DNA of 64,000 bases, from NCBI RefSeq assembly GCF_905175385.1, contig NZ_HG992750.1:248001-312000 (forward strand), in the 5' to 3' direction. Shown piece after piece: positions 1 through 45,162 of this stretch. Every line of letters begins with the position of its first letter. Positions within the stretch are counted from its first letter, which is position 1. Under the pieces are notes generated by a model, which ran no database searches, was not told the DNA's origin, and saw only the letters and a list, made by a program, of their open reading frames with translations. Source of the stretch: Vibrio sp. B1FLJ16 (GTDB lineage Bacteria; Pseudomonadota; Gammaproteobacteria; Enterobacterales; Vibrionaceae). Made by a program: the position numbers and the translations under genes.

Positions 1-108
1 GAATCGCCAGTTGCGGTGCCAGAACCTTCCTCGCTGGCAATATTAGGCTTTGGGTTGTTCGGTGCAGGGTTGTTACGTCGCAGGCAAAGTAAGAAGTATT
101 CAGACTAA
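1..108 (+). CDS. C-terminal end of a PEP-CTERM-anchored protein (5' end outside window)
   Basis: The window opens inside this reading frame and 35 codons remain before the stop. They encode a typical PEP-CTERM sorting tail: a VPEPSS motif, a hydrophobic segment (LAILGFGLFGAGLL) and a basic RRRQSKK end. In such proteins the tail is recognised by an exosortase, and the mature protein is exported to the surface or matrix. The tail differs from those of the six-member family at 32543-44913 (which end PEPAALSMFGAG), so this is probably a different PEP-CTERM protein. What the body does cannot be seen. A bidirectional terminator hairpin follows. Confidence 0.8.
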   Translation, partial: ESPVAVPEPSSLAILGFGLFGAGLLRRRQSKKYSD

Positions 109-28435: not shown

Positions 28436-28790
28436 TCTTGAGATTTCCGCTCTCATTATCTAAAGCTAAAAAACCTTTAATCGCTAACTTCTAGAGCTAT
28501 TCTGGGATAGTTATGTTGGTTTCTAGCATCTACCAGTAATTCGCAACTACGTACACAACACAAACAACCAATGCATGTTAAAGTGGGGTGATATTATAAA
28601 AATTTTGTATTTCGTAGCGTATATATATCAATGGTCTGATTTTACACAACATTTTTTAAACAGTTTGTTGTCATAAAGAAATTTAAAACTAAGAAGGCAA
28701 ATGCAAATAATCTCCAGAAGGATTTCTCCTACAGCCAACCAAGAATAGTCCTACATTCATTCTCTTCCTCATATGTAATATGTGTCATTC

Positions 28791-28811
28791 AAAGTCACAT
28801 ATTGTGACTTT
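28791..28811. promoter_or_regulatory. Perfect inverted repeat before the GGDEF-EAL gene
   Basis: AAAGTCAC, ATATT, GTGACTTT is an 8-5-8 perfect palindrome ending 37 bp before ATG 28849. It could be an operator or a leader hairpin. The rest of the 413-bp gap (28436-28848) is AT-rich without other recognisable sites. Confidence 0.45.
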
Positions 28812-28848
28812 GCTTCAAAAAATAGACTCATTGAAGGAGTGGGTAGTC

Positions 28849-30888: not shown

Positions 30889-30911
30889 GAACGATATAGG
30901 ATTAGGTGACA

Positions 30912-32339
30912 ATGTCAAACCAAAGCATTAATAAAATGGTCATTGTTGGTAACAGTATCATTGCAGTTACCTTGATATTGTTGTTCATTATGCAGCATGC
31001 ATCTATTGTTCTAGAGCAAAATGACTTGGACGCACGTTTGCAAGCTAGGGAATTAACCAAGGCCACATTAGCTATACAAAAAATGTCTGATGACATTACA
31101 AATATGACCCGCTCGTATGTGTTTACTGGTGATAAAAAATATAAGGACATACTATTCAGCATCTATAATTTCATATCTCCAGAAAACTCATGGCCAGTTA
31201 ACTATCACTTCTACTTATCTCAGATGGAAGCTAACCTAAACTATAAAGTAAAGAGTAGTGATATTTTTGACATCGTTAAACACTTTGAAGACCTTGGTGT
31301 AAATGAATATGAGCTAAACTTATTAGTTGAAAGTAAGGATATTAGGCGTGATTTATATACATTTGAAATGGATGTCATTGCAATTTATGACTCTGGTAGT
31401 ATTGAGCACGCGAAATCAATGGTGAACAGCAACTTTTATCTGATCGGGAAGAGAGAACTATCAAAGAAGTTATCGAGGCTAAACTCAATAATTAATTACA
31501 GGATTGAGCTGCAAAGTGAGTCAAAGAAATATACACAAAATATATTGAGTATATCATCATGCATGCTACTACTAGTTTTAATGACATTTTTTATAGCTTT
31601 TTTTAATAAAACTAAAAAACTTATAAGTTTTAATATTAATTCTATAGAATTATGGAGTGATAAAATATCTAAAGGTCAATACAATTTAGCGTTAAATACA
31701 AAAGTGCTGAAAGAATTTGTCCCTTTAACCAATTCGATAAAAAGTTTGTCGAAAAATACGGCCACTTTAGTTCATAAACTGCAAGATATTGCAGAGCGGG
31801 ACGAGTTAACTGGGATGCCAAACAGGCGTGCTGCGATAGACTTTTTAAAGCAAAAACAAAAAGAAGTTGCTCGCTATTATTCACTGTGCAGTATTATTCT
31901 TATAGATATCGATTATTTTAAGCGAATCAATGATACCTACGGGCATCCAGTGGGGGATGAAATTTTGATTAATGTGGGGCGCTTGATATCAAAATATTCA
32001 CGCGATTCTGACTGCGCTGCTCGTCTGGGTGGGGAAGAGTTCATGGTTATCGCGCCACAAACCGATCTCAATTCTGCTTATATACTGGCTAATAAACTCA
32101 AAACAAAAATTGAAAGTTACATACATCATTGTGGCCAACATCAAATTAAAGTCACAATAAGTAGTGGGGTTTCAATACTCGTCGCTGCTGGTAGTGTTGA
32201 GCAGACCTACAAACAAGCTGATGATGCATTGTATCTCGCTAAAAAACTCGGTCGAAACAATGTTCAGGTTTATTCTTCTTCGAGCGATTCAGATAGCGTT
32301 GTTAGCGCCACTAATGAGGGGATTAAGGCTAGGGAATGA
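30912..32339 (+). CDS. Membrane diguanylate cyclase (GGEEF with I-site)
   Basis: The 475-residue protein has TM1 near residues 10-28, a helical periplasmic domain of about 170 residues, TM2 near 208-228, a short HAMP-like linker, and a C-terminal GGDEF domain. The active-site GGEEF is intact, the inhibitory RDSD (RxxD) lies five residues before it, and DELTGMPNRRAA and the substrate-binding DIDYFKRINDTYGHPVGDE are present, so it should make c-di-GMP. ATG 30912 is preferred; a GTG two codons upstream is possible. The 5' half is AT-rich like its neighbour, whereas the GGDEF part has ordinary composition. Confidence 0.92.
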   Translation: MSNQSINKMVIVGNSIIAVTLILLFIMQHASIVLEQNDLDARLQARELTKATLAIQKMSDDITNMTRSYVFTGDKKYKDILFSIYNFISPENSWPVNYHFYLSQMEANLNYKVKSSDIFDIVKHFEDLGVNEYELNLLVESKDIRRDLYTFEMDVIAIYDSGSIEHAKSMVNSNFYLIGKRELSKKLSRLNSIINYRIELQSESKKYTQNILSISSCMLLLVLMTFFIAFFNKTKKLISFNINSIELWSDKISKGQYNLALNTKVLKEFVPLTNSIKSLSKNTATLVHKLQDIAERDELTGMPNRRAAIDFLKQKQKEVARYYSLCSIILIDIDYFKRINDTYGHPVGDEILINVGRLISKYSRDSDCAARLGGEEFMVIAPQTDLNSAYILANKLKTKIESYIHHCGQHQIKVTISSGVSILVAAGSVEQTYKQADDALYLAKKLGRNNVQVYSSSSDSDSVVSATNEGIKARE

Positions 32340-32383
32340 GTAAAGTCACCGTTGAGGCGGTAAAATAAGTTAGCCGGTCAAAT

Positions 32384-32418
32384 AAAAAGGCGAGACTGTT
32401 AAACAATCTCGCCTTTTT
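32384..32418. terminator. Bidirectional terminator between the cyclase and PEP-CTERM copy F
   Basis: AAAAAGGCGAGA pairs with TCTCGCCTTTTT. The core GGCGAGA is shared with the terminators of the other family cassettes. Confidence 0.85.
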
Positions 32419-32542
32419 CAAGAAATAATGTAACGCATGCGGCTGGCAAAGTCGTTACGGCTTGCAAAAGCTTGTGCTAACTCCGCATCACAAACGTGGC
32501 AAGCGTAAAGCAAACTGCATCACTAAGCAGAAGAATCAGTGT

Positions 32543-33349
32543 TTACTGATTTCTTCTGCGTCTATACCCCATAAGACCTAGCATTAACATACCAGCACCG
32601 AATGTGGATAGTGCTGCAGGCTCAGGTACCTCAACCGTTGTTACACGAGACAGACTTAAGTCGACGCTGATTTCACTATTCTCAATATCGCCTGTGCTGT
32701 CTAAGTTAAAGATTGCCTGAAATGCCCCAACGCTTGCCCAGTTGATATCTTCATAATCATCGAACCAAGCGATTGGGATAATGGCATCGTACAAGCCACC
32801 GTCATTGATGTCACCAAATGTACCAAAATCAAGCACATGCTTGACGAAGACTCCGTTCATTGCATCATCCGTCCAGACAATTAACTGAACAGGTGCAATA
32901 ATATCATTGGAAACATCTTCAAACAGAATTCCTGTCGTACCTGACCAGTCAGCACCCCCTAAGCCGTCGACGTCAACCCCTGTTGCCCAGTTACTGCCGA
33001 CACTGTTCATACCATCATAGGTTACGACTGCGAAGCCTTTAACAAGATCATCAAGTGTCGCACTGAATCGTCCGTTGGATACCTGAACATGAATCCCAAG
33101 AGAATCATCATCCTCTACGTCTTCTACACCGTTATCAACTTCCTCGACGTAGATATCTCTATAGCCGCCTAAGATATCAGTACCACCAGTACTGATTTGG
33201 CTGGCAGCGCCACCCCCACCTACAACGTTGTCAAAGACAGGGCCTTGATTAGTAGAAAAATCATCTATTAAGATTTCCGCAGCCTGTGCATTAACATGCA
33301 AAGCCAAAGCACATGCCATAACGGACAACGCTCTAATAAATTTAAACAT
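32543..33349 (-). CDS. PEP-CTERM family protein, copy F (minus strand)
   Basis: This is a 268-residue secreted protein with signal peptide MFKFIRALSVMACALALHVN, an acidic beta-rich body starting EILIDDFSTNQGPVFDNVVG, a conserved WASVGAFQAIFNLDSTGDI near the C-terminus, and a PEP-CTERM tail (VPEPAALSTFGAG, hydrophobic segment, YRRRRNQ). The body matches five tandem copies at 39012-44913. Its N-half resembles copies A-C (VGGGG) and its C-half copies D-E (AIIPIAWFDD), indicating a mosaic. The start is set by GAGGG eight bases upstream. It has its own sigma-54 promoter and upstream box. Function unknown; the tail implies exosortase-dependent surface or matrix location. Confidence 0.85.
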   Translation of the reverse strand: MFKFIRALSVMACALALHVNAQAAEILIDDFSTNQGPVFDNVVGGGGAASQISTGGTDILGGYRDIYVEEVDNGVEDVEDDDSLGIHVQVSNGRFSATLDDLVKGFAVVTYDGMNSVGSNWATGVDVDGLGGADWSGTTGILFEDVSNDIIAPVQLIVWTDDAMNGVFVKHVLDFGTFGDINDGGLYDAIIPIAWFDDYEDINWASVGAFQAIFNLDSTGDIENSEISVDLSLSRVTTVEVPEPAALSTFGAGMLMLGLMGYRRRRNQ

Positions 33350-33429
33350 ATATATCCCTCTATATCTTATCTTCATCTTATTTAGAGAATGCAAAGTAAC
33401 GTATGCTTTGCCAGCCTGGTGCAACAGGA

Positions 33430-33445
33430 TGCTTACTTTGTGCCA
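33430..33445 (-). promoter_or_regulatory. Sigma-54 (-24/-12) promoter of copy F
   Basis: TGGCACAAAGTAAGCA on the minus strand matches TGGCAC-N5-TTGCA with exact GG-GC spacing, and ends 80 bp before the ATG. Confidence 0.75.
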
Positions 33446-33530
33446 GGTAGAGGGGGTTCTATTTATTATCTATAAATAGCAACTGGTTATGGTTGATTTG
33501 GTTTTGGGTTGGTAAGTGTTTGATTTTATG

Positions 33531-33561
33531 GTATGGCATACAGTGTTAAATAATCTGACAC
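33531..33561 (-). promoter_or_regulatory. Conserved upstream box of copy F
   Basis: Begins GTGTCAGATTATTTAACAC on the minus strand and ends GCCATAC. It is shared by all six family members about 80-90 bp upstream of the -24 element. It is a candidate enhancer-binding-protein site. Confidence 0.6.
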
Positions 33562-34005
33562 TCATCCTCAGTTGCTTTTTACGCTTTGTCGAATTCCTTT
33601 ACACCGCATGACCGAGGAATTTAGGTACACATATATTGTGTAGGGAGGGGGAAGGTATACCCAATATGCAGGTTAGTTGACCTAGCATACAGGGTATCAG
33701 AGGAGAGGGGCGAGTTAAGCGCGACAATCTTGGTTGGGTGTTACATTCGTTCATATACTTTGTTTGCTGGTAACTTCCATCACCTTTAACTTTGATAAAG
33801 TGGAATAAAAATATCGGCGTTTCTATTTTGCCCACATGCAGAATCACACGATTTTCCATGTAATTGAGAATAAACAACCCGGGCAGAAGCAATAATGAGA
33901 GCGTACGTAAATGTCACTCTCGATTATGCCGACGTATTCAGTGAGTAACCTCTATGGCCTGGAGTTCAGGACTGTATTTCTGCTGGCAGATGTGATGTTG
34001 CCAAA

Positions 34006-34908
34006 TTACATTTCGGGAGTATGGCAGCGTTTAATCTCTTCAATCAGTGCGTTAGCCAATGGTGTCGCTGAGCTGTTCTTTAAGGTGATTAGCATCACCG
34101 GAATCTGATACGTATATTTTTCGGGCAGGATAGGTTTAAGCAGCCCTTTACTAACCCAACTGCTGGCGTAGTGCTCGGGCAGATAGCCGATAAACTCACC
34201 CGATAAAATCAAATGAGCAATACCCTCATCGTGATAAGCGATGGCACTGTTCTGGTAGTTCAGTTCATCGTTACGCGTCTCTTTATCTCGCGTATAGTTA
34301 CTGGTGATCACTTCAGCTTGTTGCAGAAGCGTGTCAGTTTTAGCTGGATCACAGTCGAACAACGGGTGGCCTTTGCCACAATATAAATAGTTAGTTTCAT
34401 TGTGCAGCGGGTGGTAATCGAGTCCTCTTAACTGGTGACGGCTGACGCCTATACCAACCAGCGAGCGGCCATTTACCACTGATGTTTCTACTTCGCGAGC
34501 CTCACACACGTTAATGTCGAATTGTAAATTATTGCTCTTGTTTTTTAACGCAGAAATCACCTCTGCTAAATGACAGCGAGGGTCGTTAATTAAGGTGTCG
34601 ATTATGGCGATCGTCACCCGGCCTGAGAGTTCGTTTTTGGAAGTTGCTACTGTCGCTGCAAAGGCTTCACACTGCTGGAGTAGCTCCAGTGACGCCTGAT
34701 AGGTTACGCGCCCGGCTTCAGTTACCTCAAAGCCGCTCCTGCCTCGCTTACAAAGCTTGAGTCCAAGACGTAATTCCAAATCCGATAAATGAGAACTAAT
34801 CGTTGAGCGACCTATGTTTAAACGGGATTCAGCAGCAGATAACCCTCCGCACTCGACGATAGCAACGAATATTCTAAGCATACGTAAATCAACATCTTGA
34901 ACCTGCAT
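34006..34908 (-). CDS. LysR-family regulator divergent from hutH
   Basis: The 300-residue protein begins MQVQDVDLRMLRIFVAIVECGG. The HTH is near residues 22-45 (AAESRLNIGRSTISSHLSDLE), followed by a substrate-binding domain. It is divergent from hutH, with 255 bp between, and probably controls hutH-hutU in response to histidine or urocanate; that role is inferred from position only, since classical hut operons use the GntR-type HutC. A T-N11-A-like TTCG...CGAA repeat near 34942-34970 may be its site. Confidence 0.85.
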   Translation of the reverse strand: MQVQDVDLRMLRIFVAIVECGGLSAAESRLNIGRSTISSHLSDLELRLGLKLCKRGRSGFEVTEAGRVTYQASLELLQQCEAFAATVATSKNELSGRVTIAIIDTLINDPRCHLAEVISALKNKSNNLQFDINVCEAREVETSVVNGRSLVGIGVSRHQLRGLDYHPLHNETNYLYCGKGHPLFDCDPAKTDTLLQQAEVITSNYTRDKETRNDELNYQNSAIAYHDEGIAHLILSGEFIGYLPEHYASSWVSKGLLKPILPEKYTYQIPVMLITLKNSSATPLANALIEEIKRCHTPEM

Positions 34909-35163
34909 GGCCTTCCATCACCTGTATAGTTTTAATCTTTAGTTCGAAAAAATCGGAATAAACTACGAACATTATGCTTTTATAAAACATCCAGAGCAAG
35001 TTAGCATACCCGCATAAGTAACCTAAGATATCCCGATAACATAGAAAGAGTTGGCTATTCCACTGAGTTATTTCCCTTGGACTTGCGCTCGAGACAGCTT
35101 TCTGAATCCTTCATCCTGAAGTTTTTTGGGTATCATCATTTAGCAGTAAGTTAGGAGAACAAA

Positions 35164-36657
35164 ATGACGTTTAGATATGGTGTAGACCGACTAAACCTTG
35201 ATATTGTAAATGGAATCGCTGACGGCAGTATCAAAGCCGAACTGTGTGAAGAAGCTTTAGATAAAATTAATACCAGCCGTCGCAATGTTGACGTGATGGC
35301 TGCTTCAGACAAAGCGGTGTACGGCATCAATACCGGTTTTGGTCCTTTATGTGATACTCAAATCTCACCTGAAGAGACGCATCTGCTACAAAAAAACCTC
35401 CTTATTACTCATGCGGTTGGTGTCGGTGAGCCGATTGCTAAACCAATCTCTAAGCTAATGCTGATCACTAAGGTTCACGCGTTAAGCCAGGGTTTCTCAG
35501 GTATTCGCCTGGAAGTCGTTGAACGTATGTTGGCGTTTATCGAACTTGATCTTATTCCTGTTGTACCAGAGCAAGGTTCTGTAGGTGCATCGGGTGACTT
35601 AGCACCGCTTTCTCATCTGTTCTTACCACTAATTGGTGAAGGTGAGTTCTGGCAGGGCGACAGTATCGTTCCTGCTGCTGAGGCGCTACGTGAACACGGC
35701 CTTGAGCCGCTTGAGCTGCACGCGAAAGAAGGTCTGGCGCTTATCAACGGCACACAGTTCATTCTGTCTCACGCTATTACTGGTCTAACCAAAATGCGCT
35801 ATCTGCTTGATCTGGCAGACCTGGCTGGTGCGATGAGTATTGAAGGTATGCAGGGCAGCAGCTCTCCATTCCGTGAAGAGCTTCACCTGACTCGTGCTTT
35901 TGCTGGTAACCTTGAAGTTGCAGCTCGTATGCGCCGATTCTTCAAAGACTCTGAAAACATGGCTTCACACACTGATTGTGATCGTGTGCAAGACCCATAT
36001 TCACTGCGTTGTATTCCACAAGTACACGGTGCGTCTCGCAACGCATACAATCACCTGAAAGAACTTGCTGAAATCGAAATGAACTCTGTAACTGATAACC
36101 CGATTGTTATCAGCTCAGAAGAAGCGATTTCTGGTGGTAGTTTCCACGGCCAACCACTGGCGATGGTACTGGACTACGCATCAATTGCAGCAGCAGAACT
36201 TGGTAACATTGCAGACCGTCGCTGTTACCTGTTGCTTGAGGGTTTACATGGCCTGCCGCGTCTTCTGACGAGTTCAGGTGGTCTTAATTCAGGCATGATG
36301 ATCCCGCAGTATGCGACTGCAGCGTTAGTAACTGAAAACAAATCACTTTGTTTCCCGCCTTCTGCTGATAGCGTGCCAACCTCTATGGGTCAGGAAGACC
36401 ACGTTTCGATGGGTAGCATCTCTGGACGTAAACTTAACCAGATTCTAGGTAACCTGGAAAAGATCTTCGCTATCGAACTGATGTATGCTGCACAAGCTAT
36501 CGACTTCAGACGTCCGAACAAATGTTCAGACCTGATTGAAGAAAACTTCCAGATTATCCGTGAGAAGGTTGCCAAGCTTGAAGAAGACCGACTGCTGAAG
36601 CCTGACATCGACGCGATGATCAAACTTGTTAAAACACAAGCATTTAATGTGAACTAA
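35164..36657 (+). CDS. hutH: Histidine ammonia-lyase
   Basis: Deaminates L-histidine to trans-urocanate. The 497-residue protein carries the autocatalytic MIO motif in GSVGASGDLAPLSH (Ala-Ser-Gly near residue 145), YGINTGFGPL near residue 50 with the catalytic Tyr, and the QDPYSLRCIPQVHGASR stretch near residue 275. The downstream urocanate hydratase supports histidine over tyrosine or phenylalanine as substrate. A TAGGAG site precedes the ATG. No hutI or hutG gene is present in the window, so the pathway stops at imidazolonepropionate here. Confidence 0.92.
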   Translation: MTFRYGVDRLNLDIVNGIADGSIKAELCEEALDKINTSRRNVDVMAASDKAVYGINTGFGPLCDTQISPEETHLLQKNLLITHAVGVGEPIAKPISKLMLITKVHALSQGFSGIRLEVVERMLAFIELDLIPVVPEQGSVGASGDLAPLSHLFLPLIGEGEFWQGDSIVPAAEALREHGLEPLELHAKEGLALINGTQFILSHAITGLTKMRYLLDLADLAGAMSIEGMQGSSSPFREELHLTRAFAGNLEVAARMRRFFKDSENMASHTDCDRVQDPYSLRCIPQVHGASRNAYNHLKELAEIEMNSVTDNPIVISSEEAISGGSFHGQPLAMVLDYASIAAAELGNIADRRCYLLLEGLHGLPRLLTSSGGLNSGMMIPQYATAALVTENKSLCFPPSADSVPTSMGQEDHVSMGSISGRKLNQILGNLEKIFAIELMYAAQAIDFRRPNKCSDLIEENFQIIREKVAKLEEDRLLKPDIDAMIKLVKTQAFNVN

Positions 36658-36671
36658 GGGAGATGGTAACA

Positions 36672-38675
36672 GTGTTAAATTTTCAAGAACAGATTAAGCA
36701 AGGCATCCCTGGCACACTGCCGGAAGCAAGACCGTATCCGGCTGGTGTAAACCGTGCGCCAAAGCGTAAAGACATTTTATCTCCTGAAGAAAAGCAATTA
36801 GCTATTCGTAACGCATTGCGCTATTTCCCGAAAGAGTGGCATCAGGAACTGGCTGCCGAGTTCGCTCAAGAGCTGAAAGATTTCGGCCGTATCTACATGT
36901 ACCGTTTCAAGCCGAACTACGACCTGAAAGCGCGCTCTATCGCTGATTACCCAGCAAAATGTGAGCAAGCAGCGGCTATCATGCTAATGATCGACAACAA
37001 CTTAGATCCAGCAGTAGCGCAGCACCCAGAAGAGTTAATCACTTACGGTGGTAACGGTGCGGTATTCCAGAACTGGGCACAATACCTGCTGACAATGAAA
37101 TATCTGAGTGAGATGGAAAGCGATCAAACGCTACACCTGTACTCTGGTCACCCAATGGGTCTGTTCCCGTCTTCAGAAGAAGCGCCTCGTGTTGTTGTAA
37201 CTAACGGCATGATGATCCCGAACTACTCTAAGCCAGATGATTGGGAAAAATTCAACGCGCTAGGCGTGACTCAATACGGTCAGATGACGGCGGGTTCGTT
37301 CATGTACATCGGTCCACAGGGCATCGTACACGGCACGACAATCACAGTAATGAACGCATTCCGTAAGGTACTGGAAAAAGATCAAAGCCCGAAAGGTAAG
37401 ATCTTCCTGACTGCGGGTCTGGGCGGTATGAGTGGTGCTCAGCCTAAAGCAGGTAACATCGCTAACTGTATTACTGTTTGTGCAGAAGTGAACCCGAAAG
37501 CGGCGATCAAGCGCCACGAGCAAGGTTGGGTTGATGAGCTTGTTGATAACATGGACGCGCTAGTAGAGCGTGTTCGCGAAGCTCAAGCTAACGAAGAAGT
37601 AGTTTCTATTGCCTTCATCGGTAACGTGGTTGAAGTATGGGAAACTTTCTACGAGAAAGACATTTTCGTACACCTAGGCTCTGACCAAACGTCACTACAT
37701 AACCCTTGGTCAGGCGGTTACTACCCAGTAGAGATCAGCTACGAAGAGTCGAACCGTCTTATCCGTGAAGAGCCAGAAGTGTTCAAGGTAAAAGTACAGG
37801 AAACTCTGAAGCGTCACGCTGATGCAGTCAACAAGCACACTGCTCGTGGTACTTACTTCTTTGACTACGGTAACGCATTCTTGCTTGAAGCCTCTCGCGC
37901 TGGTGGCGATGTGATGGCTGAAAACGGCATCGACTTTAAGTACCCGTCATACGTACAGGACATTCTTGGTCCTATGTGTTTTGACTATGGTTTTGGTCCA
38001 TTCCGTTGGGTTTGTACTTCAGGTAAACCAGAAGATCTAGATCGTACTGATGAGATTGCTGCAGAAGTGCTAAGCAAGATCATGCAAGAGTCGCCAGAAG
38101 AAATTCAACAGCAGATGCAAGACAACATCACTTGGATCAAAGATGCGAAGCAGAACAAACTGGTAGTTGGTTCTCAAGCTCGTATCCTTTACGCTGACGC
38201 GCAAGGTCGTATGGAAATCGCGAAAGCATTTAACGATGCGATCAACCGCGGCGAAATCGGTCCTGTGGTACTTGGTCGTGACCACCACGACGTAAGTGGT
38301 ACAGATTCACCGTTCCGTGAAACGTCAAACATCTACGATGGCAGCCGCTTTACTGCTGACATGGCGATCCACAACGTGATTGGCGACGGCTTCCGCGGCG
38401 CTACTTGGGTTTCTATTCATAACGGCGGCGGTGTAGGCTGGGGTGAAGTAATCAACGGCGGCTTTGGTATGCTGCTTGATGGTAGTGACAATGCAGAGCG
38501 CAGACTGAAGTCTATGCTGTTGTTCGATGTGAACAATGGTATCGCACGTCGTAGTTGGGCTCGTAACAAAGAAGCGAACTTCGCTATCAAACGCGAAATG
38601 GAAAGAACACCTAAGCTAAAAGTAACGTTAGCTAACCAGGTTGACGATGACATCATCGATAACTTGTCGTTCTAA
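36672..38675 (+). CDS. hutU: Urocanate hydratase, long eukaryote-like form
   Basis: Adds water to urocanate with NAD+ as electrophile, giving imidazolonepropionate. At 667 residues it is over 100 residues longer than the usual bacterial HutU (about 560) and matches the size of vertebrate urocanases. Conserved features include ITYGGNGAVFQNWAQYLLTM, LYSGHPMGLFPSSEEAPRVV, TAGLGGMSGAQPKA, and HNGGGVGWGEVINGGFG. I prefer GTG 36672 because GGGAG lies nine bases upstream; ATG 36663 directly abuts GGGAG. It is 14 bp after hutH and probably co-transcribed, with a terminator following. Confidence 0.92.
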   Translation: MLNFQEQIKQGIPGTLPEARPYPAGVNRAPKRKDILSPEEKQLAIRNALRYFPKEWHQELAAEFAQELKDFGRIYMYRFKPNYDLKARSIADYPAKCEQAAAIMLMIDNNLDPAVAQHPEELITYGGNGAVFQNWAQYLLTMKYLSEMESDQTLHLYSGHPMGLFPSSEEAPRVVVTNGMMIPNYSKPDDWEKFNALGVTQYGQMTAGSFMYIGPQGIVHGTTITVMNAFRKVLEKDQSPKGKIFLTAGLGGMSGAQPKAGNIANCITVCAEVNPKAAIKRHEQGWVDELVDNMDALVERVREAQANEEVVSIAFIGNVVEVWETFYEKDIFVHLGSDQTSLHNPWSGGYYPVEISYEESNRLIREEPEVFKVKVQETLKRHADAVNKHTARGTYFFDYGNAFLLEASRAGGDVMAENGIDFKYPSYVQDILGPMCFDYGFGPFRWVCTSGKPEDLDRTDEIAAEVLSKIMQESPEEIQQQMQDNITWIKDAKQNKLVVGSQARILYADAQGRMEIAKAFNDAINRGEIGPVVLGRDHHDVSGTDSPFRETSNIYDGSRFTADMAIHNVIGDGFRGATWVSIHNGGGVGWGEVINGGFGMLLDGSDNAERRLKSMLLFDVNNGIARRSWARNKEANFAIKREMERTPKLKVTLANQVDDDIIDNLSF

Positions 38676-38727
38676 GTAATCCAAAAGCTGGCTCGAATAA
38701 CGGGTCAGTACAGCGATTCTAAACATC

Positions 38728-38759
38728 AAAAAGGCAGCGAAATTTTTCGCTGCCTTTTT
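38728..38759 (+). terminator. Terminator of hutHU
   Basis: AAAAAGGCAGCGAAA pairs with TTTCGCTGCCTTTTT, a 15-bp stem with a T-run. Confidence 0.9.
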
Positions 38760-38804
38760 GGTTTGTATTGTTGTGAGAACACATCGTAAGAGAAGCTATG
38801 AAAA

Positions 38805-38834
38805 GTGTCAGTGCACTTTACATTACGCCGTATT
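38805..38834 (+). promoter_or_regulatory. Conserved upstream box of copy A
   Basis: Starts GTGTCAGTGCACTTTACATT and continues ACGCCGTATT. Same element as upstream of the other family genes. Confidence 0.6.
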
Positions 38835-38920
38835 CTATAAGTGCGAGCATTTTCTAATTAATTAACACTCCCTGCCTAATTAACTGTATTTCGGCGACAA
38901 AAAATAACGAGTATGCCATC

Positions 38921-38936
38921 TGGCATGAAATAAGCA
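38921..38936 (+). promoter_or_regulatory. Sigma-54 promoter of copy A
   Basis: TGGCATGAAATAAGCA, with correct GG-GC spacing, ends 75 bp before the ATG. Confidence 0.75.
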
Positions 38937-39011
38937 TTTCGTTGCAATGAGTTGGTTGGCGTACGTCGTTTTGTATTAACAGATACAAGGTAAAGATATA
39001 GAGGGAAATAT

Positions 39012-39818
39012 ATGAAATTAGTTAAAACGTTAGCTGTTATGGCTTGTGGCTTACTTTTGCATGCGAATGCGCAGGCAGACGAGATATTGATTGATGATTT
39101 TTCTACCCTTCAGGGGCCAGTTAGTGACTTAGTCGTTGGTGGTGGAGGGGCTTCCAATCAAATCAGCTCTGTTGGTGGTGACATACTAGGTGGTTATCGT
39201 GATATCTATGTTGAAGAAGTCGATAACGGTATTGATACGGGGGACGACGCTTCTCTGGGGATTCATGTCCAGGTTTCTAACGGTCGATTTAGTGCCACAC
39301 TTGATGACCTTGTTAAAGGTTATGCTGTCATCACCTATGATGGCGCGAATGAGGTAGGTAGCAACTGGGAAGGAAATGTAGATACTAACGGCTTAGGTAG
39401 TCAGGACTGGTCTGACACCGCTTACTTCTCATTTGAAGAAATCTCTAATGACATCATCGCCCCCGTTCAGTTAATCGTCTGGACCAATGACAACGAAGAT
39501 GGAGTGACTTTTGTTAAGCACATTGCTGACCTTACAACCGACGGTGATATCAATGATGGCGGTTTATACGACTCACAAACCTCTCTTAGCGAGTTTGCGG
39601 ACGCCGGCAGTATCAACTGGGCGAGTGTAGGGGCGTTTCAGGCCGTATTTAACCTAGACAGTACCGGAAACCTTGACAACAGTGAAATAAGTGTCGATTT
39701 AAGTTTGTCTCGCGCGGTGCTGGTAACTGAGGTACCAGAGCCAGCTGCGCTATCCATGTTTGGTGCGGGCATGCTGATGTTAGGTTTTGTGGGATACAGA
39801 CGCAGGAAGAATCAGTAA
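39012..39818 (+). CDS. PEP-CTERM family protein, copy A
   Basis: This is a 268-residue secreted protein with signal peptide MKLVKTLAVMACGLLLHANAQA, the body motif ILIDDFSTLQGPVSDLVVGG, GYRDIYVEEVDNG, a short acidic variable linker (IDTGDDAS), GRFSATLDDLVKGYAV, PVQLIVWTNDN, INWASVGAFQAVFNLDSTGN, and the tail VPEPAALSMFGAG...YRRRKNQ. It is the first of five tandem plus-strand copies. The region around residues 195-210 (SQTSLSEFADAG) differs from all other copies. GAGGG precedes the ATG. Function unknown; no known enzymatic motif. The body looks like an all-beta, Asp-rich, possibly Ca-binding fold (inference). Confidence 0.87.
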   Translation: MKLVKTLAVMACGLLLHANAQADEILIDDFSTLQGPVSDLVVGGGGASNQISSVGGDILGGYRDIYVEEVDNGIDTGDDASLGIHVQVSNGRFSATLDDLVKGYAVITYDGANEVGSNWEGNVDTNGLGSQDWSDTAYFSFEEISNDIIAPVQLIVWTNDNEDGVTFVKHIADLTTDGDINDGGLYDSQTSLSEFADAGSINWASVGAFQAVFNLDSTGNLDNSEISVDLSLSRAVLVTEVPEPAALSMFGAGMLMLGFVGYRRRKNQ

Positions 39819-39940
39819 ACACATTGATTCTTTCAGTTAGAAGTGCAGTTTGCTTTATGCTTGCTATGCGTTGAGCGAAGTTAGTACTAGCTGTAGCGAA
39901 CCGAAACGACTATGCCAGCCGCTTTTGATATTGTTTATGA

Positions 39941-39976
39941 AAAACGGTGAGACTGAATGACAGTCTCACCGTTTTT
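39941..39976 (+). terminator. Terminator of copy A
   Basis: AAAACGGTGAGAC pairs with GTCTCACCGTTTT, followed by T. It lies 122 bp after the stop, beyond the conserved 3' UTR. Confidence 0.85.
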
Positions 39977-40031
39977 AATTCATTCAAGCCCTTCCCCTCC
40001 ACCCAACACGAGTCATCAACTTGTCTGAACA

Positions 40032-40060
40032 GTGTCAGGCTATTTTACATTGCACGTTTA
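40032..40060 (+). promoter_or_regulatory. Conserved upstream box of copy B
   Basis: Starts GTGTCAGGCTATTTTACATT and continues GCACGTTTA. It sits about 85 bp upstream of the -24 element. Confidence 0.6.
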
Positions 40061-40145
40061 TTTTTTAGCTAAAGCACACTCTAGTTAAAGGCGAGCTCAG
40101 CCTAATTAATTGTTATTAAGACACAAATAAAAAATAACCAACACT

Positions 40146-40161
40146 TGGTATGAAATAAGCA
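40146..40161 (+). promoter_or_regulatory. Sigma-54 promoter of copy B
   Basis: TGGTATGAAATAAGCA, with correct GG-GC spacing, 84 bp before the ATG. Confidence 0.7.
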
Positions 40162-40245
40162 TCAGCTTGCACTGGAGTTGTCTGTATGTATTGGTTTCTT
40201 TGAATTCACTTAAACAAGATGAAGATAAGATATAGAGGGATATAT

Positions 40246-41064
40246 ATGAAAATTATTAGAGCGTTATCTGTTATGACTTGTGCAGTGCTTTTGCATGCGA
40301 ATGCACAGGCAGCGGAAATCTTGATTGATGATTTTTCTACCAATCAAGGCCCTGTAAGCGACTTAGTTGTTGGTGGTGGTGGGAATTTTAATCAAATCAG
40401 TTCTGGTGGTGGTGACATACTTGGCGATTATCGTGATATCTACGTCGAGGAAGTTGATAACGGCATTGATCCGACTAAGGCGGCGGATGATCCTTCTTTA
40501 GGGATTCATGTCCAGGTATCAAATGGACGATTTAGCGCCACACTCGATGACCTTGTTAAAGCTTATGCGGTCGTAACTTACGATGGCTCGAACGAGGTTG
40601 GCAGCGATTGGGAAGCCGGTGTCGATGTTGATGGTTTAGGTGGTGTGGATTGGACAGGTACGACCGGATTCCAGTTTGATTCTGTTTCTAATGACATTGT
40701 TGCGCCCGTTCAGTTGATTATCTGGACGAACGACAGTGGGGATGGGGTTACATTTGTTAAGCACGTCATGGACTATGACACCCTTGGTGATATCAATGAT
40801 GGTGGTTTATACGATGCCTTTTTCTCTGTAAACGGGTTCGCTAACGCAAGTAGCATCAACTGGGCTAGTGTGGGGGCATTCCAAGCTATATTTAATTTAG
40901 ACACTACTGGGGACATTACTCATAGTAAAGTAGCCGTCGATTTAAGCTTAGCTCGTGCGACGGCGGTTCAAGTACCCGAGCCAGCTGCGCTGTCCATGTT
41001 TAGTGCTGGTGTGCTAATGCTCGGTTTTGTGGGTTACAGACGCAGAAAAATCAGTAAACGCTGA
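40246..41064 (+). CDS. PEP-CTERM family protein, copy B
   Basis: This is a 272-residue member of the family with signal peptide MKIIRALSVMTCAVLLHANA, VVGGGGNFNQISSGGG, the longer acidic linker IDPTKAADDPS, DVDGLGGVDWTGTTG, AFFSVNGFANASSINWASVG and the PEPAALSMFSAG tail. The tail ends RRRKISKR instead of the RRRKNQ/RRRKDQ of its siblings: the A-run at 41046-41050 is one base shorter than in copy E, shifting the last codons, but the basic cluster needed in PEP-CTERM tails is kept. GAGGG precedes ATG 40246. It is most similar to copy C throughout. Confidence 0.86.
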   Translation: MKIIRALSVMTCAVLLHANAQAAEILIDDFSTNQGPVSDLVVGGGGNFNQISSGGGDILGDYRDIYVEEVDNGIDPTKAADDPSLGIHVQVSNGRFSATLDDLVKAYAVVTYDGSNEVGSDWEAGVDVDGLGGVDWTGTTGFQFDSVSNDIVAPVQLIIWTNDSGDGVTFVKHVMDYDTLGDINDGGLYDAFFSVNGFANASSINWASVGAFQAIFNLDTTGDITHSKVAVDLSLARATAVQVPEPAALSMFSAGVLMLGFVGYRRRKISKR

Positions 41065-41178
41065 TTTATACTCAGTAATGCAGTGTATTACGTTTGTAAT
41101 GCTTTTGAAGCGAAGTTAGCACAAGCTTTGAAACTATAGCGACTTTGCCAAGCGCTTTCACTAAACATTTATGAAGAA

Positions 41179-41210
41179 GGGCGAGACTGTGTGGCAGTCT
41201 CGCCCGTTTT
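41179..41210 (+). terminator. Terminator of copy B
   Basis: GGGCGAGACT pairs with AGTCTCGCCC, followed by GTTTT. Confidence 0.85.
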
Positions 41211-41311
41211 GTATATGCGGCAAATTCACCCGAATCAACAATTATCAATCCTATCCAACTGTCCTCACAGCATCATAGCGAGCATAAAGCACAGCATAAA
41301 CAGCCTGGCTT

Positions 41312-41341
41312 ATTGTCGATTTATTTTACATTGTACGGTAT
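41312..41341 (+). promoter_or_regulatory. Conserved upstream box of copy C
   Basis: ATTGTCGATTTATTTTACAT then TGTACGGTAT. The left GTGTCAG part is degenerate here; the TTTACATTGTACGGTAT part is intact. Confidence 0.55.
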
Positions 41342-41428
41342 ATGTTGAAGGTAAAGACTCGCCAATTAGAGAGTATCCCCATCCTAATCGATTGTTATTA
41401 AGTAACAAAGGCTAATCAGAATGCCATC

Positions 41429-41444
41429 TGGCACAGAATAAGCA
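41429..41444 (+). promoter_or_regulatory. Sigma-54 promoter of copy C
   Basis: TGGCACAGAATAAGCA, with correct GG-GC spacing, 80 bp before the ATG. Confidence 0.75.
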
Positions 41445-41524
41445 TTACCTTGCATTGAGTTGGTTGGCATAAATTTCTTTGAATTCACTGAAACAAGATG
41501 AAGATAAGATATAGAGGGATATAT

Positions 41525-42337
41525 ATGAAAATTATTAGAGCTTTATCCGTTATGACGTGTGCTTTGCTGCTCCATGCAAATGGGCAGGCAGAGGAAATTT
41601 TGATTGATGACTTTTCTACTAATCAAGGCCCGGTTAGTGATTTAGTCGTGGGTGGTGGTGGCAGTTCCAGTCAGATCATTTCTGGCGGTGGTGACATACT
41701 AGGCGAGTATCGTGATATCTACGTTGAGGAAGTCGATAATGGTGTCGATCCAACTAAGGCAGCGGATGATCCTACTTTAGGAATTCATGTCCAGGTATCC
41801 AGCGGGCGATTCAGCGCGACACTTGATGACCTTGTTAAAGCCTATGCAGTGGTAACCTATGATGGCGCGAATGAGGTGGGTGGTAACTGGCAGACGGGTG
41901 TAGATGTTGACGGCTTAGGCGGAGACGACTGGACCGGTACGATTGGATTCCAGTTTGAAGCTGTCTCTAATGACATCGTTGCGCCTGTTCAGCTAATCGT
42001 ATGGACGAATGATAGTGGGGATGGGGTTACGTTTGTTAAACATGTCATGGACTACGACACTCTGGGCGACATTAACGGTGACGGTTTATATGACGCGTTT
42101 TTCTCTGTTGACGGGTTCGCTGACGCCGGCAGTATTAACTGGGCCAGTGTGGGGGCATTTCAGGCAGTATTTAATTTGGATACGACCGGCGATCTTTCTC
42201 ATAGCAAAGTCAGCGTTGATTTAAGTCTCGCTCGTGCGACGGCGGTACAAGCTCCTGAGCCAGCTGCGCTATCTATGTTCGGTGCAGGTGTGTTAATGCT
42301 TGGTTTTGTAGGATACAGGCGTAGAAAAGATCAGTAG
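41525..42337 (+). CDS. PEP-CTERM family protein, copy C
   Basis: This is a 270-residue member with signal peptide MKIIRALSVMTCALLLHANG, VVGGGGSSSQIISGGG, linker VDPTKAADDPT, DVDGLGGDDWTGTIG, AFFSVDGFADAGSINWASVG, and the tail APEPAALSMFGAG...YRRRKDQ. The proline before PEP is kept, but the usual Val is Ala. The leader from the sigma-54 site to the ATG is nearly identical to that of copies B, D and E, and GAGGG sets ATG 41525. Close sibling of copy B. Confidence 0.87.
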   Translation: MKIIRALSVMTCALLLHANGQAEEILIDDFSTNQGPVSDLVVGGGGSSSQIISGGGDILGEYRDIYVEEVDNGVDPTKAADDPTLGIHVQVSSGRFSATLDDLVKAYAVVTYDGANEVGGNWQTGVDVDGLGGDDWTGTIGFQFEAVSNDIVAPVQLIVWTNDSGDGVTFVKHVMDYDTLGDINGDGLYDAFFSVDGFADAGSINWASVGAFQAVFNLDTTGDLSHSKVSVDLSLARATAVQAPEPAALSMFGAGVLMLGFVGYRRRKDQ

Positions 42338-42462
42338 ACGCTGATTTTTTTACTCAGTTATGCAGTTTGTTTGGCGCTTACCATTCTTATGTAGTGAAGT
42401 AAGCACAAGCTTCTGCAAAACGTAACAATTTTGCCAGCCGATTTCATTTCTCATTTATGAAT

Positions 42463-42496
42463 AAGGGCGGGACTTTATGACAGTCTCGCCCTTTTT
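42463..42496 (+). terminator. Terminator of copy C
   Basis: AAGGGCGGGACT pairs with AGTCTCGCCCTT (one G-T pair), followed by T's. Confidence 0.85.
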
Positions 42497-42607
42497 ATTT
42501 TTGCAATAAATTCAGCTATCTCAATAGCTGTTAGCCCAACAGGACTGTCCCGCAAAGTATGTTAGTACCAAAGCGTTTTTTCAGGATTACAAAACCAGTC
42601 AAATAGA

Positions 42608-42637
42608 GTGTCAGGCTATTTTACATTGTACGGCATA
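42608..42637 (+). promoter_or_regulatory. Conserved upstream box of copy D
   Basis: Starts GTGTCAGGCTATTTTACATT and continues GTACGGCATA. It is the clearest example of the box. Confidence 0.65.
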
Positions 42638-42723
42638 TCGCCAAGGTAAATCCTTTATTAATCAAATAGAAAATAACCCTAATCAATTGTTATTCATAAA
42701 TAAAGTTCAAACGGAATAGTGTT

Positions 42724-42739
42724 CGGCCTGAAATGTGCA
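42724..42739 (+). promoter_or_regulatory. Sigma-54 promoter of copy D
   Basis: CGGCCTGAAATGTGCA keeps GG and GC at the right spacing; the flanking bases are weaker than in its siblings. 80 bp before the ATG. Confidence 0.65.
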
Positions 42740-42819
42740 TTATGTTGCATGGTTGGCAAATAAAACCCTACTTAGCATTAATCAAAAATAAGATGAAAAT
42801 AAGATATAGAGGGATATAT

Positions 42820-43637
42820 ATGAAAATTATTAGAGCTTTATCTGTTATGACTTGTGCTTTTCTTTTGCATGCAAATGCACAAGCATCAGAAATATTAATT
42901 GACGACTTTTCTACTAATCAAGGTCCGGTAAGCGACACAATAGTAGATGATATGGGTAGTTCCAACCAAGTCAGTACTGCTGGTAATGACATAGTTGGCG
43001 GCTATCGTGATATCTACGTCGAGGAGGTTGAGAATGGTGTCTTAAATAAAGAAGGTGATGCATTAGGTGATGATCCTACTTTAGGTATCCATACTCAGGT
43101 ATCGAATGGCCGATTCAGTGCGACACTTGATGATCTAGTTAAAGCCTATGCAGTGGTAACCTATGATGGCGCAAATGAAGTAGGTAGTAACTGGGAAACC
43201 GGCGTGGATGTTGACGGTTTAGGTGGAGAGGACTGGACAGGTACTAGTGGCTTCAAGTTTGAAGATACTTCAAATGATATCGTTGCTCCCGTTCAGTTAA
43301 TTGTCTGGACGATGATGCAATGGACGGAGTCTTCGTTAAGCATATCCTTGATTTCGGAACCTTTGGTGACGTTAATGATGGCGGTTTATATGATGCTATC
43401 ATCCCTATCGTTTGGTTTGATGACTATGAAGATATCAACTGGGCGAGCGTAGGTGCGTTTCAGGCAGTATTTAACTTAGACAGTACTGGTAACATTGATA
43501 ATAGTGAAATCAGTGTCGACTTAAGTATCTCTCGTGCAGTGGCAGTTGATATACCTGAACCAGCAGCGCTATCTATGTTCGGTGCAGGTGTGTTAATGCT
43601 TGGTTTTGTGGGATACAGACGCAGAAAAGATCAGTAG
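42820..43637 (+). pseudogene. PEP-CTERM family protein, copy D, frameshifted
   Basis: The first frame gives signal peptide MKIIRALSVMTCAFLLHANA, a DDMGSSNQVSTAGND N-terminal module and the longest acidic linker (VLNKEGDALGDDPT), up to PVQLIVWT. There the frame is lost and runs to a stop at 43452. The remainder, MDGVFVKHILDFGTFGD... to the tail IPEPAALSMFGAG...RRRKDQ, is in the next frame (stop 43637). Comparison with copy F (TGGACGGATGATGCAATG) shows that one G is missing at 43310-43312 (TGGACGATGATGCAATG). Everything else, including promoter, box, leader and terminator, is intact, so the lesion is recent, phase-variable or a sequencing error. Without repair the product lacks its anchor. Confidence 0.85.
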
Positions 43638-43759
43638 ACGTTGATTCTTTTTCTCATTATGCAGTTTGCTTGATGCTTAAGAAGGTTGTGCAGCGACGTT
43701 AGTACAAGCCACTGCATACCATGAAGACTTTGCCAACCATTTTCATTCTATTATTAGCT

Positions 43760-43796
43760 AAAACGGCGAGATTGTATGGCAGTCTCGTCGTTTTTA
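43760..43796 (+). terminator. Terminator of copy D
   Basis: AAACGGCGAGA pairs with TCTCGTCGTTT, followed by T's. Confidence 0.8.
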
Positions 43797-43900
43797 TTTG
43801 TATCGTTCGGACCTGTGGAGCTCATTCACGCAATAGGCTCATATCGTTTTTTAGTGAGTATTAAACCGAGTTGATAGGAACGTAATAATAACTCATTGAA

Positions 43901-43930
43901 GTGTCAGCATTTTTTACATTTTACGGTATG
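43901..43930 (+). promoter_or_regulatory. Conserved upstream box of copy E
   Basis: Starts GTGTCAGCATTTTTTACATT and continues TTACGGTATG. Confidence 0.6.
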
Positions 43931-44016
43931 AGGTAAGAATAAATACCTTTCAGTCAACCGATGAGGCCTACTTAAGCCACTGTTATTTAATAATAAAAGT
44001 TAAACGGAATCCCATC

Positions 44017-44032
44017 TGGCTTGAAGTATGCA
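44017..44032 (+). promoter_or_regulatory. Sigma-54 promoter of copy E
   Basis: TGGCTTGAAGTATGCA, with correct GG-GC spacing, 80 bp before the ATG. Confidence 0.7.
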
Positions 44033-44112
44033 TCTGGTTGCATTGGCTGGTAAATAATACCCTATTTTGCATTAACTAAAACAAGATGAATATAAGATAT
44101 AAAGGAATATAT

Positions 44113-44913
44113 ATGTTGAAATTCGTTAAAGCGTTATCTGTTATGACTTGTGCTTTACTTTTGCATTCGAACGCACAAGCAGGGGACATATTAATTGATG
44201 ATTTTTCTACCAACCAAGGTCCTGTAAGTGACCTAGTCGTGGATGATATGGGCAGCTCCAACCAAGGTTTTACGAGTGGTAGTATCGGAGGATATCGTGA
44301 TATCTATGTTGAAGAAGTGGATAACGGCATAGGCACTGGTGATGATGATTCCCTGGGAATTCATGTTCAGGTATCAAACGGTCGCTTTAGTGCGACGCTC
44401 GATGATCTCGTTAAAGGGTTTGCTGTCGTAACCTATGACGGTGCAAATGAAGTCGGCAGCGACTGGGAGACTGGTGTAGATACCAATGGTTTAATGAGTC
44501 AGGACTGGTCAGGCACGACTGGATTCCTGTTCGAAGACATTTCTAATGACGTTATTGCGCCGGTTCAGTTAGTTGTCTGGACAAATGACAGCATGGACGG
44601 AGTAACATTCGTTAAGCATATTCTCGATTTTGCAACTTTTGGTAATATCAACGATGGCGGATTATATGATGCGATTATCCCTGTAGCCTGGTTTGATAAC
44701 CATGAAAACATCAATTGGGCGAGTGTAGGTGCGTTCCAGGCTATCTTTAACTTAGATAGCACTCAGGATCTCGATAATAGTGAAATAAGCGTCGACTTAA
44801 GTCTGTCTCGTGCCGTTGCAGTTGAAGTGCCAGAGCCTGCAGCTCTATCCATGTTTGGTGCTGGTATTTTAATGTTAGGTTTTGTGGGATCCAGACGCAG
44901 AAAAAATCAGTAA
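44113..44913 (+). CDS. PEP-CTERM family protein, copy E
   Basis: This is a 266-residue member with signal peptide MLKFVKALSVMTCALLLHSN, the DDMGSSNQ N-terminal module (as copy D), short linker IGTGDDDS, DTNGLMSQDWSGTTG, AIIPVAWFDNHENINWASVG (as D and F), and the tail VPEPAALSMFGAG followed by SRRRKNQ. It is the last cassette of the array. AAAGG precedes ATG 44113. The surrounding leader and 3' UTR contain a perfect 13-base complementary pair (44042-44054 and 45014-45026). Confidence 0.87.
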   Translation: MLKFVKALSVMTCALLLHSNAQAGDILIDDFSTNQGPVSDLVVDDMGSSNQGFTSGSIGGYRDIYVEEVDNGIGTGDDDSLGIHVQVSNGRFSATLDDLVKGFAVVTYDGANEVGSDWETGVDTNGLMSQDWSGTTGFLFEDISNDVIAPVQLVVWTNDSMDGVTFVKHILDFATFGNINDGGLYDAIIPVAWFDNHENINWASVGAFQAIFNLDSTQDLDNSEISVDLSLSRAVAVEVPEPAALSMFGAGILMLGFVGSRRRKNQ

Positions 44914-45046
44914 ATACAGGCTCTTCTATTTTATTTAACTAATGCAGTGTGCTTGGTGCTTGGCATACGCTTCTGAAGTGAAGCTAGCACAAGCTTTTGG
45001 GAACTATAGCAACTTTACCAGCCAATTTCGTTACGCCACTAATGAC

Positions 45047-45077
45047 AACGGCGGGATTCTCTAAGAATCTCGCCGTT
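45047..45077 (+). terminator. Terminator of copy E
   Basis: AACGGCGGGATTC pairs with GAATCTCGCCGTT, followed by TAT. Confidence 0.8.
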
Positions 45078-45162
45078 TATATTTGTGTAACTAATTTTTG
45101 CCTTCTTTAATTGTGAGAATATTTTTATTCTTAAAATTAGAAAGTTGTTTGTATTTGATTGG

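What the first reader, a model, noticed from the sequence alone, without database searches (positions are those of the whole stretch)
32543..44913. Six-cassette family of paralogous PEP-CTERM proteins, each a complete sigma-54 transcription unit
Six copies (F minus; A-E plus) share signal peptide, acidic beta-rich body and PEPAALSxFxAG anchor. Each repeats the same order: box, -24/-12 promoter, leader, gene, 3' UTR, hairpin. Whole regulatory units, not only genes, have been duplicated. I know of no described function for the body (start ILIDDFSTxQGPV). The exosortase needed to process the tails is not in this window. The array may encode a variable matrix or surface layer.
Basis: partly seen in the sequence, partly recalled or inferred. 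Interest (0 to 1): 0.8.

Follow-up and report, generated by a model that had tools for sequence, protein, structure and literature searches.

The report
Orphaned PEP-CTERM surface protein array
A Vibrio chromosome carries six related copies of a gene for a likely surface or matrix protein, each with its own specialised switch, but the genome as sequenced shows neither the enzyme that should attach these proteins to the cell surface nor the regulator that should turn the genes on.

Summary
In detail: six paralogous PEP-CTERM cassettes, each with box, -24/-12 site, leader, gene and hairpin. Copy D is frameshifted in this assembly. The unit is known: it is the motif-1/sigma-54 element that Haft 2006 tied to PrsR. 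In this genome 10 of 11 PEP-CTERM genes carry it. The body has no Pfam or NCBIfam family; its predicted fold is a beta-sandwich like carbohydrate-binding modules. The surprise is what is missing. Of 227 genomes of the genus, 13 have PEP-CTERM proteins and 13 an exosortase; 12 have both, and this genome alone has substrates without the enzyme. All 12 carry PrsR over cut-off; this genome has no PrsR, PrsK or XrtA-linked amidotransferase over cut-off. On a V. alfacsensis plasmid xrtA, prsT, prsK and prsR lie together; in two other genomes a relative of the body lies by prsT. Best reading: XrtA/PrsR-dependent matrix proteins whose machinery was lost, or lies on a replicon absent from the assembly. 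As assembled, the array should be silent and unsorted. Haft 2006 raised this scenario for Chlorobium tepidum.

The parts
32543..33349 (-). copy F, PEP-CTERM protein (inner ATG start)
   Evidence: TIGR02595 16.8 bits (cut-off 16)
33544..33560 (-). motif 1 (PrsR-type box) of F
   Evidence: 1 mismatch
33430..33445 (-). -24/-12 (sigma-54) site of F
   Evidence: 99 nt from box
32377..32423 (-). terminator-like hairpin of F
   Evidence: not in the scan
38806..38822 (+). motif 1 of A
   Evidence: 0 mismatches
38921..38936 (+). -24/-12 site of A
   Evidence: spacer 99
39012..39818 (+). copy A, PEP-CTERM protein
39934..39980 (+). terminator-like hairpin of A
   Evidence: not in the scan
40033..40049 (+). 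motif 1 of B
40146..40161 (+). -24/-12 site of B
   Evidence: spacer 97
40211..40248 (+). conserved leader ending with the start codon (shown for B; 97% identical to F over 38 nt)
   Evidence: D11, I22
40246..41064 (+). copy B, PEP-CTERM protein; its last residues differ from its closest relative P0002
41168..41214 (+). terminator-like hairpin of B
41314..41330 (+). motif 1 of C
   Evidence: 1 mismatch
41429..41444 (+). -24/-12 site of C
   Evidence: spacer 99
41525..42337 (+). copy C, PEP-CTERM protein (the one modelled)
42454..42500 (+). terminator-like hairpin of C
42609..42625 (+). motif 1 of D
42724..42739 (+). -24/-12 site of D
   Evidence: place counted on the sequence
42820..43637 (+). 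copy D, broken in this assembly by a frameshift near 43,310
   Evidence: intact counterpart P0006
43753..43799 (+). terminator-like hairpin of D
43902..43918 (+). motif 1 of E
44017..44032 (+). -24/-12 site of E
   Evidence: spacer 99
44113..44913 (+). copy E, PEP-CTERM protein
45038..45084 (+). terminator-like hairpin of E

Best explanation
The array encodes six old, separately promoted paralogs of one exported protein, copy D being broken in this assembly. Each has a signal peptide, a beta-sandwich body resembling carbohydrate-binding modules, and a PEP-CTERM tail. Proposed mechanism: phosphorylated PrsR binds motif 1 and, through sigma-54 at the -24/-12 site, turns on each single-gene unit; the protein is exported, exosortase A cuts the PEP tail, and the body is handed to the surface or exopolysaccharide matrix, where it binds polysaccharide. 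Shown here: gene and cis-element anatomy, purifying selection on body and tail, linkage of relatives to prsT/prsKR, and no XrtA, PrsR, PrsK or XrtA amidotransferase over cut-off in this assembly. Inferred: PrsR binding, sigma-54 use, processing, polysaccharide binding. Since the machinery is a separate locus, plasmid-borne in V. alfacsensis, this genome most likely lost it recently, or the assembly lacks the replicon that bears it. As assembled, the array should be transcriptionally silent and, if expressed, left unprocessed in the inner membrane.
Confidence: 0.72

Rival explanations
1. The machinery is present in the living strain on a plasmid that the assembly does not hold, so the array works normally.
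For: In V. alfacsensis xrtA lies on plasmid records of 174-221 kb. G006, whose third contig has the length of one of them (176,380), has three PEP-CTERM hits on that contig and three on its two other contigs. Promoters and tails here are intact or constrained. Haft 2006 gives the same plasmid case for Desulfovibrio vulgaris.
Against: The assembly is two contigs and scored 100% complete. Six other relatives have xrtA on contigs of 1.2-3.6 Mb. Copy D is already broken. The contig sizes lowered this from 0.33 to 0.30 on checking.
Confidence: 0.3
2. A different, unrecognised activator and a different protease or transpeptidase now serve the regulon.
For: Ten intact promoter pairs and constrained tails although no PrsR or XrtA was found.
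Against: The best PrsR-like protein here (401.6 bits) has counterparts at 391-404 bits in 12 of the other 15 genomes searched, including XrtA-negative G001 and G009, so it looks like an ordinary NtrC-type regulator. The 12 relatives with PEP-CTERM all have the standard pair.
Confidence: 0.08
3. The array is a decaying relic with no remaining function.
For: Copy D is frameshifted, copy B has altered last residues, and one weaker PEP-CTERM hit (C2:527732) lacks a sigma-54 site. No machinery found.
Against: Five copies are intact with low dN/dS, though that mostly records past selection. Close counterparts of several copies exist in other records.
Confidence: 0.25
4. The six genes are unrelated to exosortase sorting; the tail is only a membrane anchor.
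For: None beyond the missing enzyme.
Against: TIGR02595 over cut-off in all six, the P-E-P residues invariant in the 46 aligned sequences, PrsR-type box, prsT linkage of relatives.
Confidence: 0.03

Closest known systems
PEP-CTERM/exosortase A (EpsH) system with PrsK/PrsR/sigma-54 control (Haft et al. 2006, PMC1569441)
   Same: Tail, signal peptide, single-gene units, motif 1 plus sigma-54 site, paralogous expansion; relatives sit by prsT/prsKR.
   Different: No exosortase, PrsR or PrsK over cut-off in this assembly. Box-to-GG distance 97-99 nt in the array, against a published spacer of 32-92 nt (measured to the start of the 17-nt motif 2, so a few bases shorter on that scale, still above 92).
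Flocculation protein PepA (NF033554; PMC9850573 for the RpoN-dependent Aquincola gene)
   Same: RpoN-dependent PEP-CTERM gene with -24/-12 promoter and a predicted enhancer upstream (passages); weak similarity mainly near the tail.
   Different: At most 25.5 against the 80-bit cut-off for the array proteins.
Orphan PEP-CTERM genes of Chlorobium tepidum, as discussed in Haft et al. 2006 (passage)
   Same: PEP-CTERM proteins without an EpsH homolog; plasmid loss suggested there.
   Different: Two there; eleven here, ten with box and promoter pair.
Carbohydrate-binding modules CBM11, CBM29, CBM30 and related beta-sandwiches
   Same: Predicted fold of the body.
   Different: No sequence match in the PDB search or to a Pfam CBM; ligand site untested.

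Membership tests
PEP-CTERM proteins | C-terminal TIGR02595 domain over cut-off | tested here: met
   6 of 6 array copies (D on its second piece) at 16.8-22.8 bits against 16
PEP-CTERM proteins | N-terminal signal peptide | tested here: met
   Read directly from the alignment; N-terminal helix at residues 2-19 of the model, low confidence; no predictor run
PEP-CTERM proteins | cognate exosortase in the genome | tested here: not met
   TIGR02602 and PF09721 in own genome: none over cut-off
PrsR/sigma-54 regulon | motif 1 plus -24/-12 site upstream | tested here: met
   6 of 6 array copies, 10 of 11 genes in all; binding untested
PrsR/sigma-54 regulon | PrsR and PrsK in the genome | tested here: not met
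   none over cut-off
PrsR/sigma-54 regulon | PrsT in the genome | not tested
   no search of the own genome was made
Carbohydrate-binding module | CBM-like beta-sandwich fold | tested here: inconclusive
Carbohydrate-binding module | sequence membership in a CBM family | tested here: not met
   no Pfam CBM among the families matched by 46 members at E up to 10; by Pfam HMMs only
Carbohydrate-binding module | binding to a polysaccharide | not testable with these tools
   needs a binding assay

The most novel reading that the evidence does not exclude
This Vibrio runs a working PEP-CTERM regulon of eleven proteins without exosortase or PrsR, using an unrecognised sorting enzyme and an unrecognised sigma-54 activator for the same box.
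Probability: 0.07. Interest if true: 0.8.

Novelty: new variant of a known kind. Interest (0 to 1): 0.42.

Why it matters
It is a natural test of whether PEP-CTERM sorting and PrsR control are indispensable. One genome keeps the substrates and their switches while 12 of its genus keep the whole set. Removing xrtA or prsR from a harmless relative that has both, and comparing the fate of the same family of clients, would show directly what the enzyme and the regulator do. It also suggests that in some Vibrio the sorting and exopolysaccharide machinery may come and go as one unit while its client proteins multiply on the chromosome.

Tried and rejected
Rejected: (a) an exosortase in the own genome: the only hit (21 bits, C1:2449179, one stop inside) overlaps a 255-aa ORF that by eye is a regulator. 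(b) A PrsR: the 401.6-bit protein has counterparts at 391-404 bits in 12 of the other 15 genomes searched. (c) Body as a known family: over the cut-off nothing but the tail; the 11 to 25-odd-bit matches to named PEP-CTERM families lie far under their cut-offs. (d) Body in solved structures by sequence: 0 matches. (e) Phage origin: no match in the phage collection; the viral fold matches add nothing to the PDB ones.

Limits: TIGR02595 is short. At E up to 1 it rang in 7 of 14 control genomes, over cut-off in 2; at E up to 0.01 in 0 of 14. At that limit the own genome has 10 hits, the eleventh (C2:527732, E 0.02) being the one without a sigma-54 site. Two own hits at 14.5 bits were dropped as under cut-off. 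Model R1 was built from the 11 own sites plus two others, so its hits there are by construction, and one search scored only 150 of 2183 candidates; it added three sites: one with a GG-N10-GC site before a lipoprotein-like gene, one with such a site but lying over a gene on the other strand, one without. G078's body gene has the box, but the script found no GG-N10-GC there; by eye a TGG 97 nt on has GT at the -12 place. Of two other V. alfacsensis PEP-CTERM genes checked, one has the pair (73 nt), one only the box. Searches scored only the best-matching candidates. No paper named B1FLJ16 was found. The DDF start resembling CBM11 is recalled, not tested. hutH/hutU are named by eye.
Full report
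What is there. Six paralogs, F on the minus strand and A-E on the plus strand, lie around genes that by eye are hutH and hutU. The proteins share a signal peptide, an acidic body that mostly starts EILIDDFST and a PEP-CTERM tail. Copy D is broken in this assembly by a frameshift near 43,310; an intact counterpart, matched by eye, is P0006, on a contig whose length (1,664,102) it shares with a protein named from Vibrio sp. B1FLJ16. The common start is the inner ATG, since copy A has an in-frame stop in the leader. Each copy has a 17-nt box, a 97-99 nt spacer and a GG-N10-GC site, a leader (by alignment) and a 3' hairpin with both-side changes kept at 4 of 17 pairs and some sequence unpaired at 6 of 17. 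The separate terminator scan lists the hairpins of B-E only.

Is it more than chance? Box within one mismatch plus a properly placed GG-N10-GC occurred in 1 of 3000 first-order Markov sequences, against 10 of the 11 PEP-CTERM genes of this genome. The eleventh is the weakest TIGR02595 hit. In the window the box occurs without mismatch four times, all at array copies, and with one mismatch five more times, two of them at array copies. The sigma-54-like pattern alone is not enriched (38 against 31 expected).

What is known. Haft et al. 2006 (PMC1569441; section 7 read whole, passages) describe this element: motif 1 of 17 nt ending TTTACA, a spacer of 32-92 nt, then a sigma-54 motif, before 99 of 167 proteobacterial PEP-CTERM genes, with PrsK, PrsR and PrsT matching its distribution. 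RpoN-dependence of a PEP-CTERM gene was shown in Aquincola (PMC9850573, passages). So the unit is not new. The array's box-to-GG distance, 97-99 nt, lies above the published range even if a few bases are taken off for the different measure; the four other own genes with the pair have 43-63 nt. G078's relative has the box and, by eye, a TGG 97 nt on, but GT instead of GC at -12.

What is missing. In the own genome the exosortase models give one stray 21-bit hit and none. PrsR and PrsK give none over cut-off, and the XrtA-linked amidotransferase scores 144 against 816.9. PrsT was not searched. Among 227 genus genomes, exosortase is in 13 and PEP-CTERM (E up to 0.01) in 13, with 12 shared; G021 has only an enzyme, of a divergent kind, and the own genome only the substrates (Fisher p 6e-18, ignoring relatedness). 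PrsR is over cut-off in all 12 and in none of the 4 others searched. [quoted passage not shown] Haft 2006 noted one exception, Chlorobium tepidum with two genes, and proposed plasmid loss with Desulfovibrio vulgaris as the example. Searches for PEP-CTERM with Vibrio and exosortase or biofilm, or with plasmid or V. alfacsensis (14 of 14, 20 of 21 and 15 of 94 papers listed; listings, starts of abstracts and a few passages seen) showed no paper on such a Vibrio.

Where the machinery lives. In V. alfacsensis, xrtA is on plasmid records of 174, 176 and 221 kb. The 174-kb one also holds EPS genes, prsT, prsK and prsR, and a broken relative of the body. In six other relatives xrtA lies on contigs of 1.2-3.6 Mb, so a plasmid seat is not the rule. 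In G078 the relative, its only hit, follows prsT (568 bits against 312) and a serine protease gene. In Enterovibrio sp. JCM 19048 it lies between prsKR-like and protease-prsT-like genes. So the family looks like an original client of this system that multiplied on the chromosome in a Vibrio lineage.

Age and selection. Copies A, B, C, E and F differ at 0.57-0.76 of synonymous sites. dN/dS is 0.05-0.15 overall in 8 of 10 pairs (two saturated), 0.03-0.18 in the tail, and looser in the signal peptide, 0.09-0.68. Synonymous sites are near saturation, so these are rough. Closest sequences outside the own records are P0010 for A (90.7%), P0002 for B (97.8%), P0003 for C (84.1%), P0011 for E (88.3%) and P0012 for F (95.5%), the last two named V. 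alginolyticus. Equal contig lengths suggest that several other records hold two or more copies on one contig.

Conclusion. The finding is real and mostly of a known kind. Its unusual side is that the assembly keeps a whole set of clients and switches without a recognisable enzyme or regulator. The likeliest causes are recent loss of the machinery locus or a replicon absent from the assembly; I cannot tell these apart here.

Noticed in passing
window 1-108 (gene continues outside: C2:247404-248108): The window's first bases are the 3' end of another PEP-CTERM gene, not of the array family, with its own box and sigma-54 site upstream, outside the window.
   Followed up: yes
L089:6807-8723 (own genome C2:1112807-1114723): A 638-aa lipoprotein-like gene with Asp-rich repeats and no PEP tail has a motif-1-like box and a GG-N10-GC site upstream; it may be a further regulon member.
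   Followed up: partly
window 28780-32339: Two cyclic-di-GMP genes (Cache-GGDEF-EAL, and GGDEF) end just beyond the 3' end of copy F, facing it; the V. alfacsensis plasmid also has a diguanylate cyclase beside a PEP-CTERM gene.
   Followed up: partly
G021:C2:602957-603715: A divergent exosortase (E 4.5e-20) in a Vibrio without a PEP-CTERM hit at E up to 0.01 and without PrsR over cut-off; its substrates are unknown.
   Followed up: no
L063:16957-17755 (NZ_CP140104.1 52956-53754): The body relative on the V. alfacsensis plasmid is broken across frames.
   Followed up: partly
window 40211-40248 and equivalents: The leader next to the start codon looks more conserved than the rest of the upstream region and reads as an in-frame extension in B-F but not in A; it may have a role beyond ribosome binding.
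   Followed up: partly
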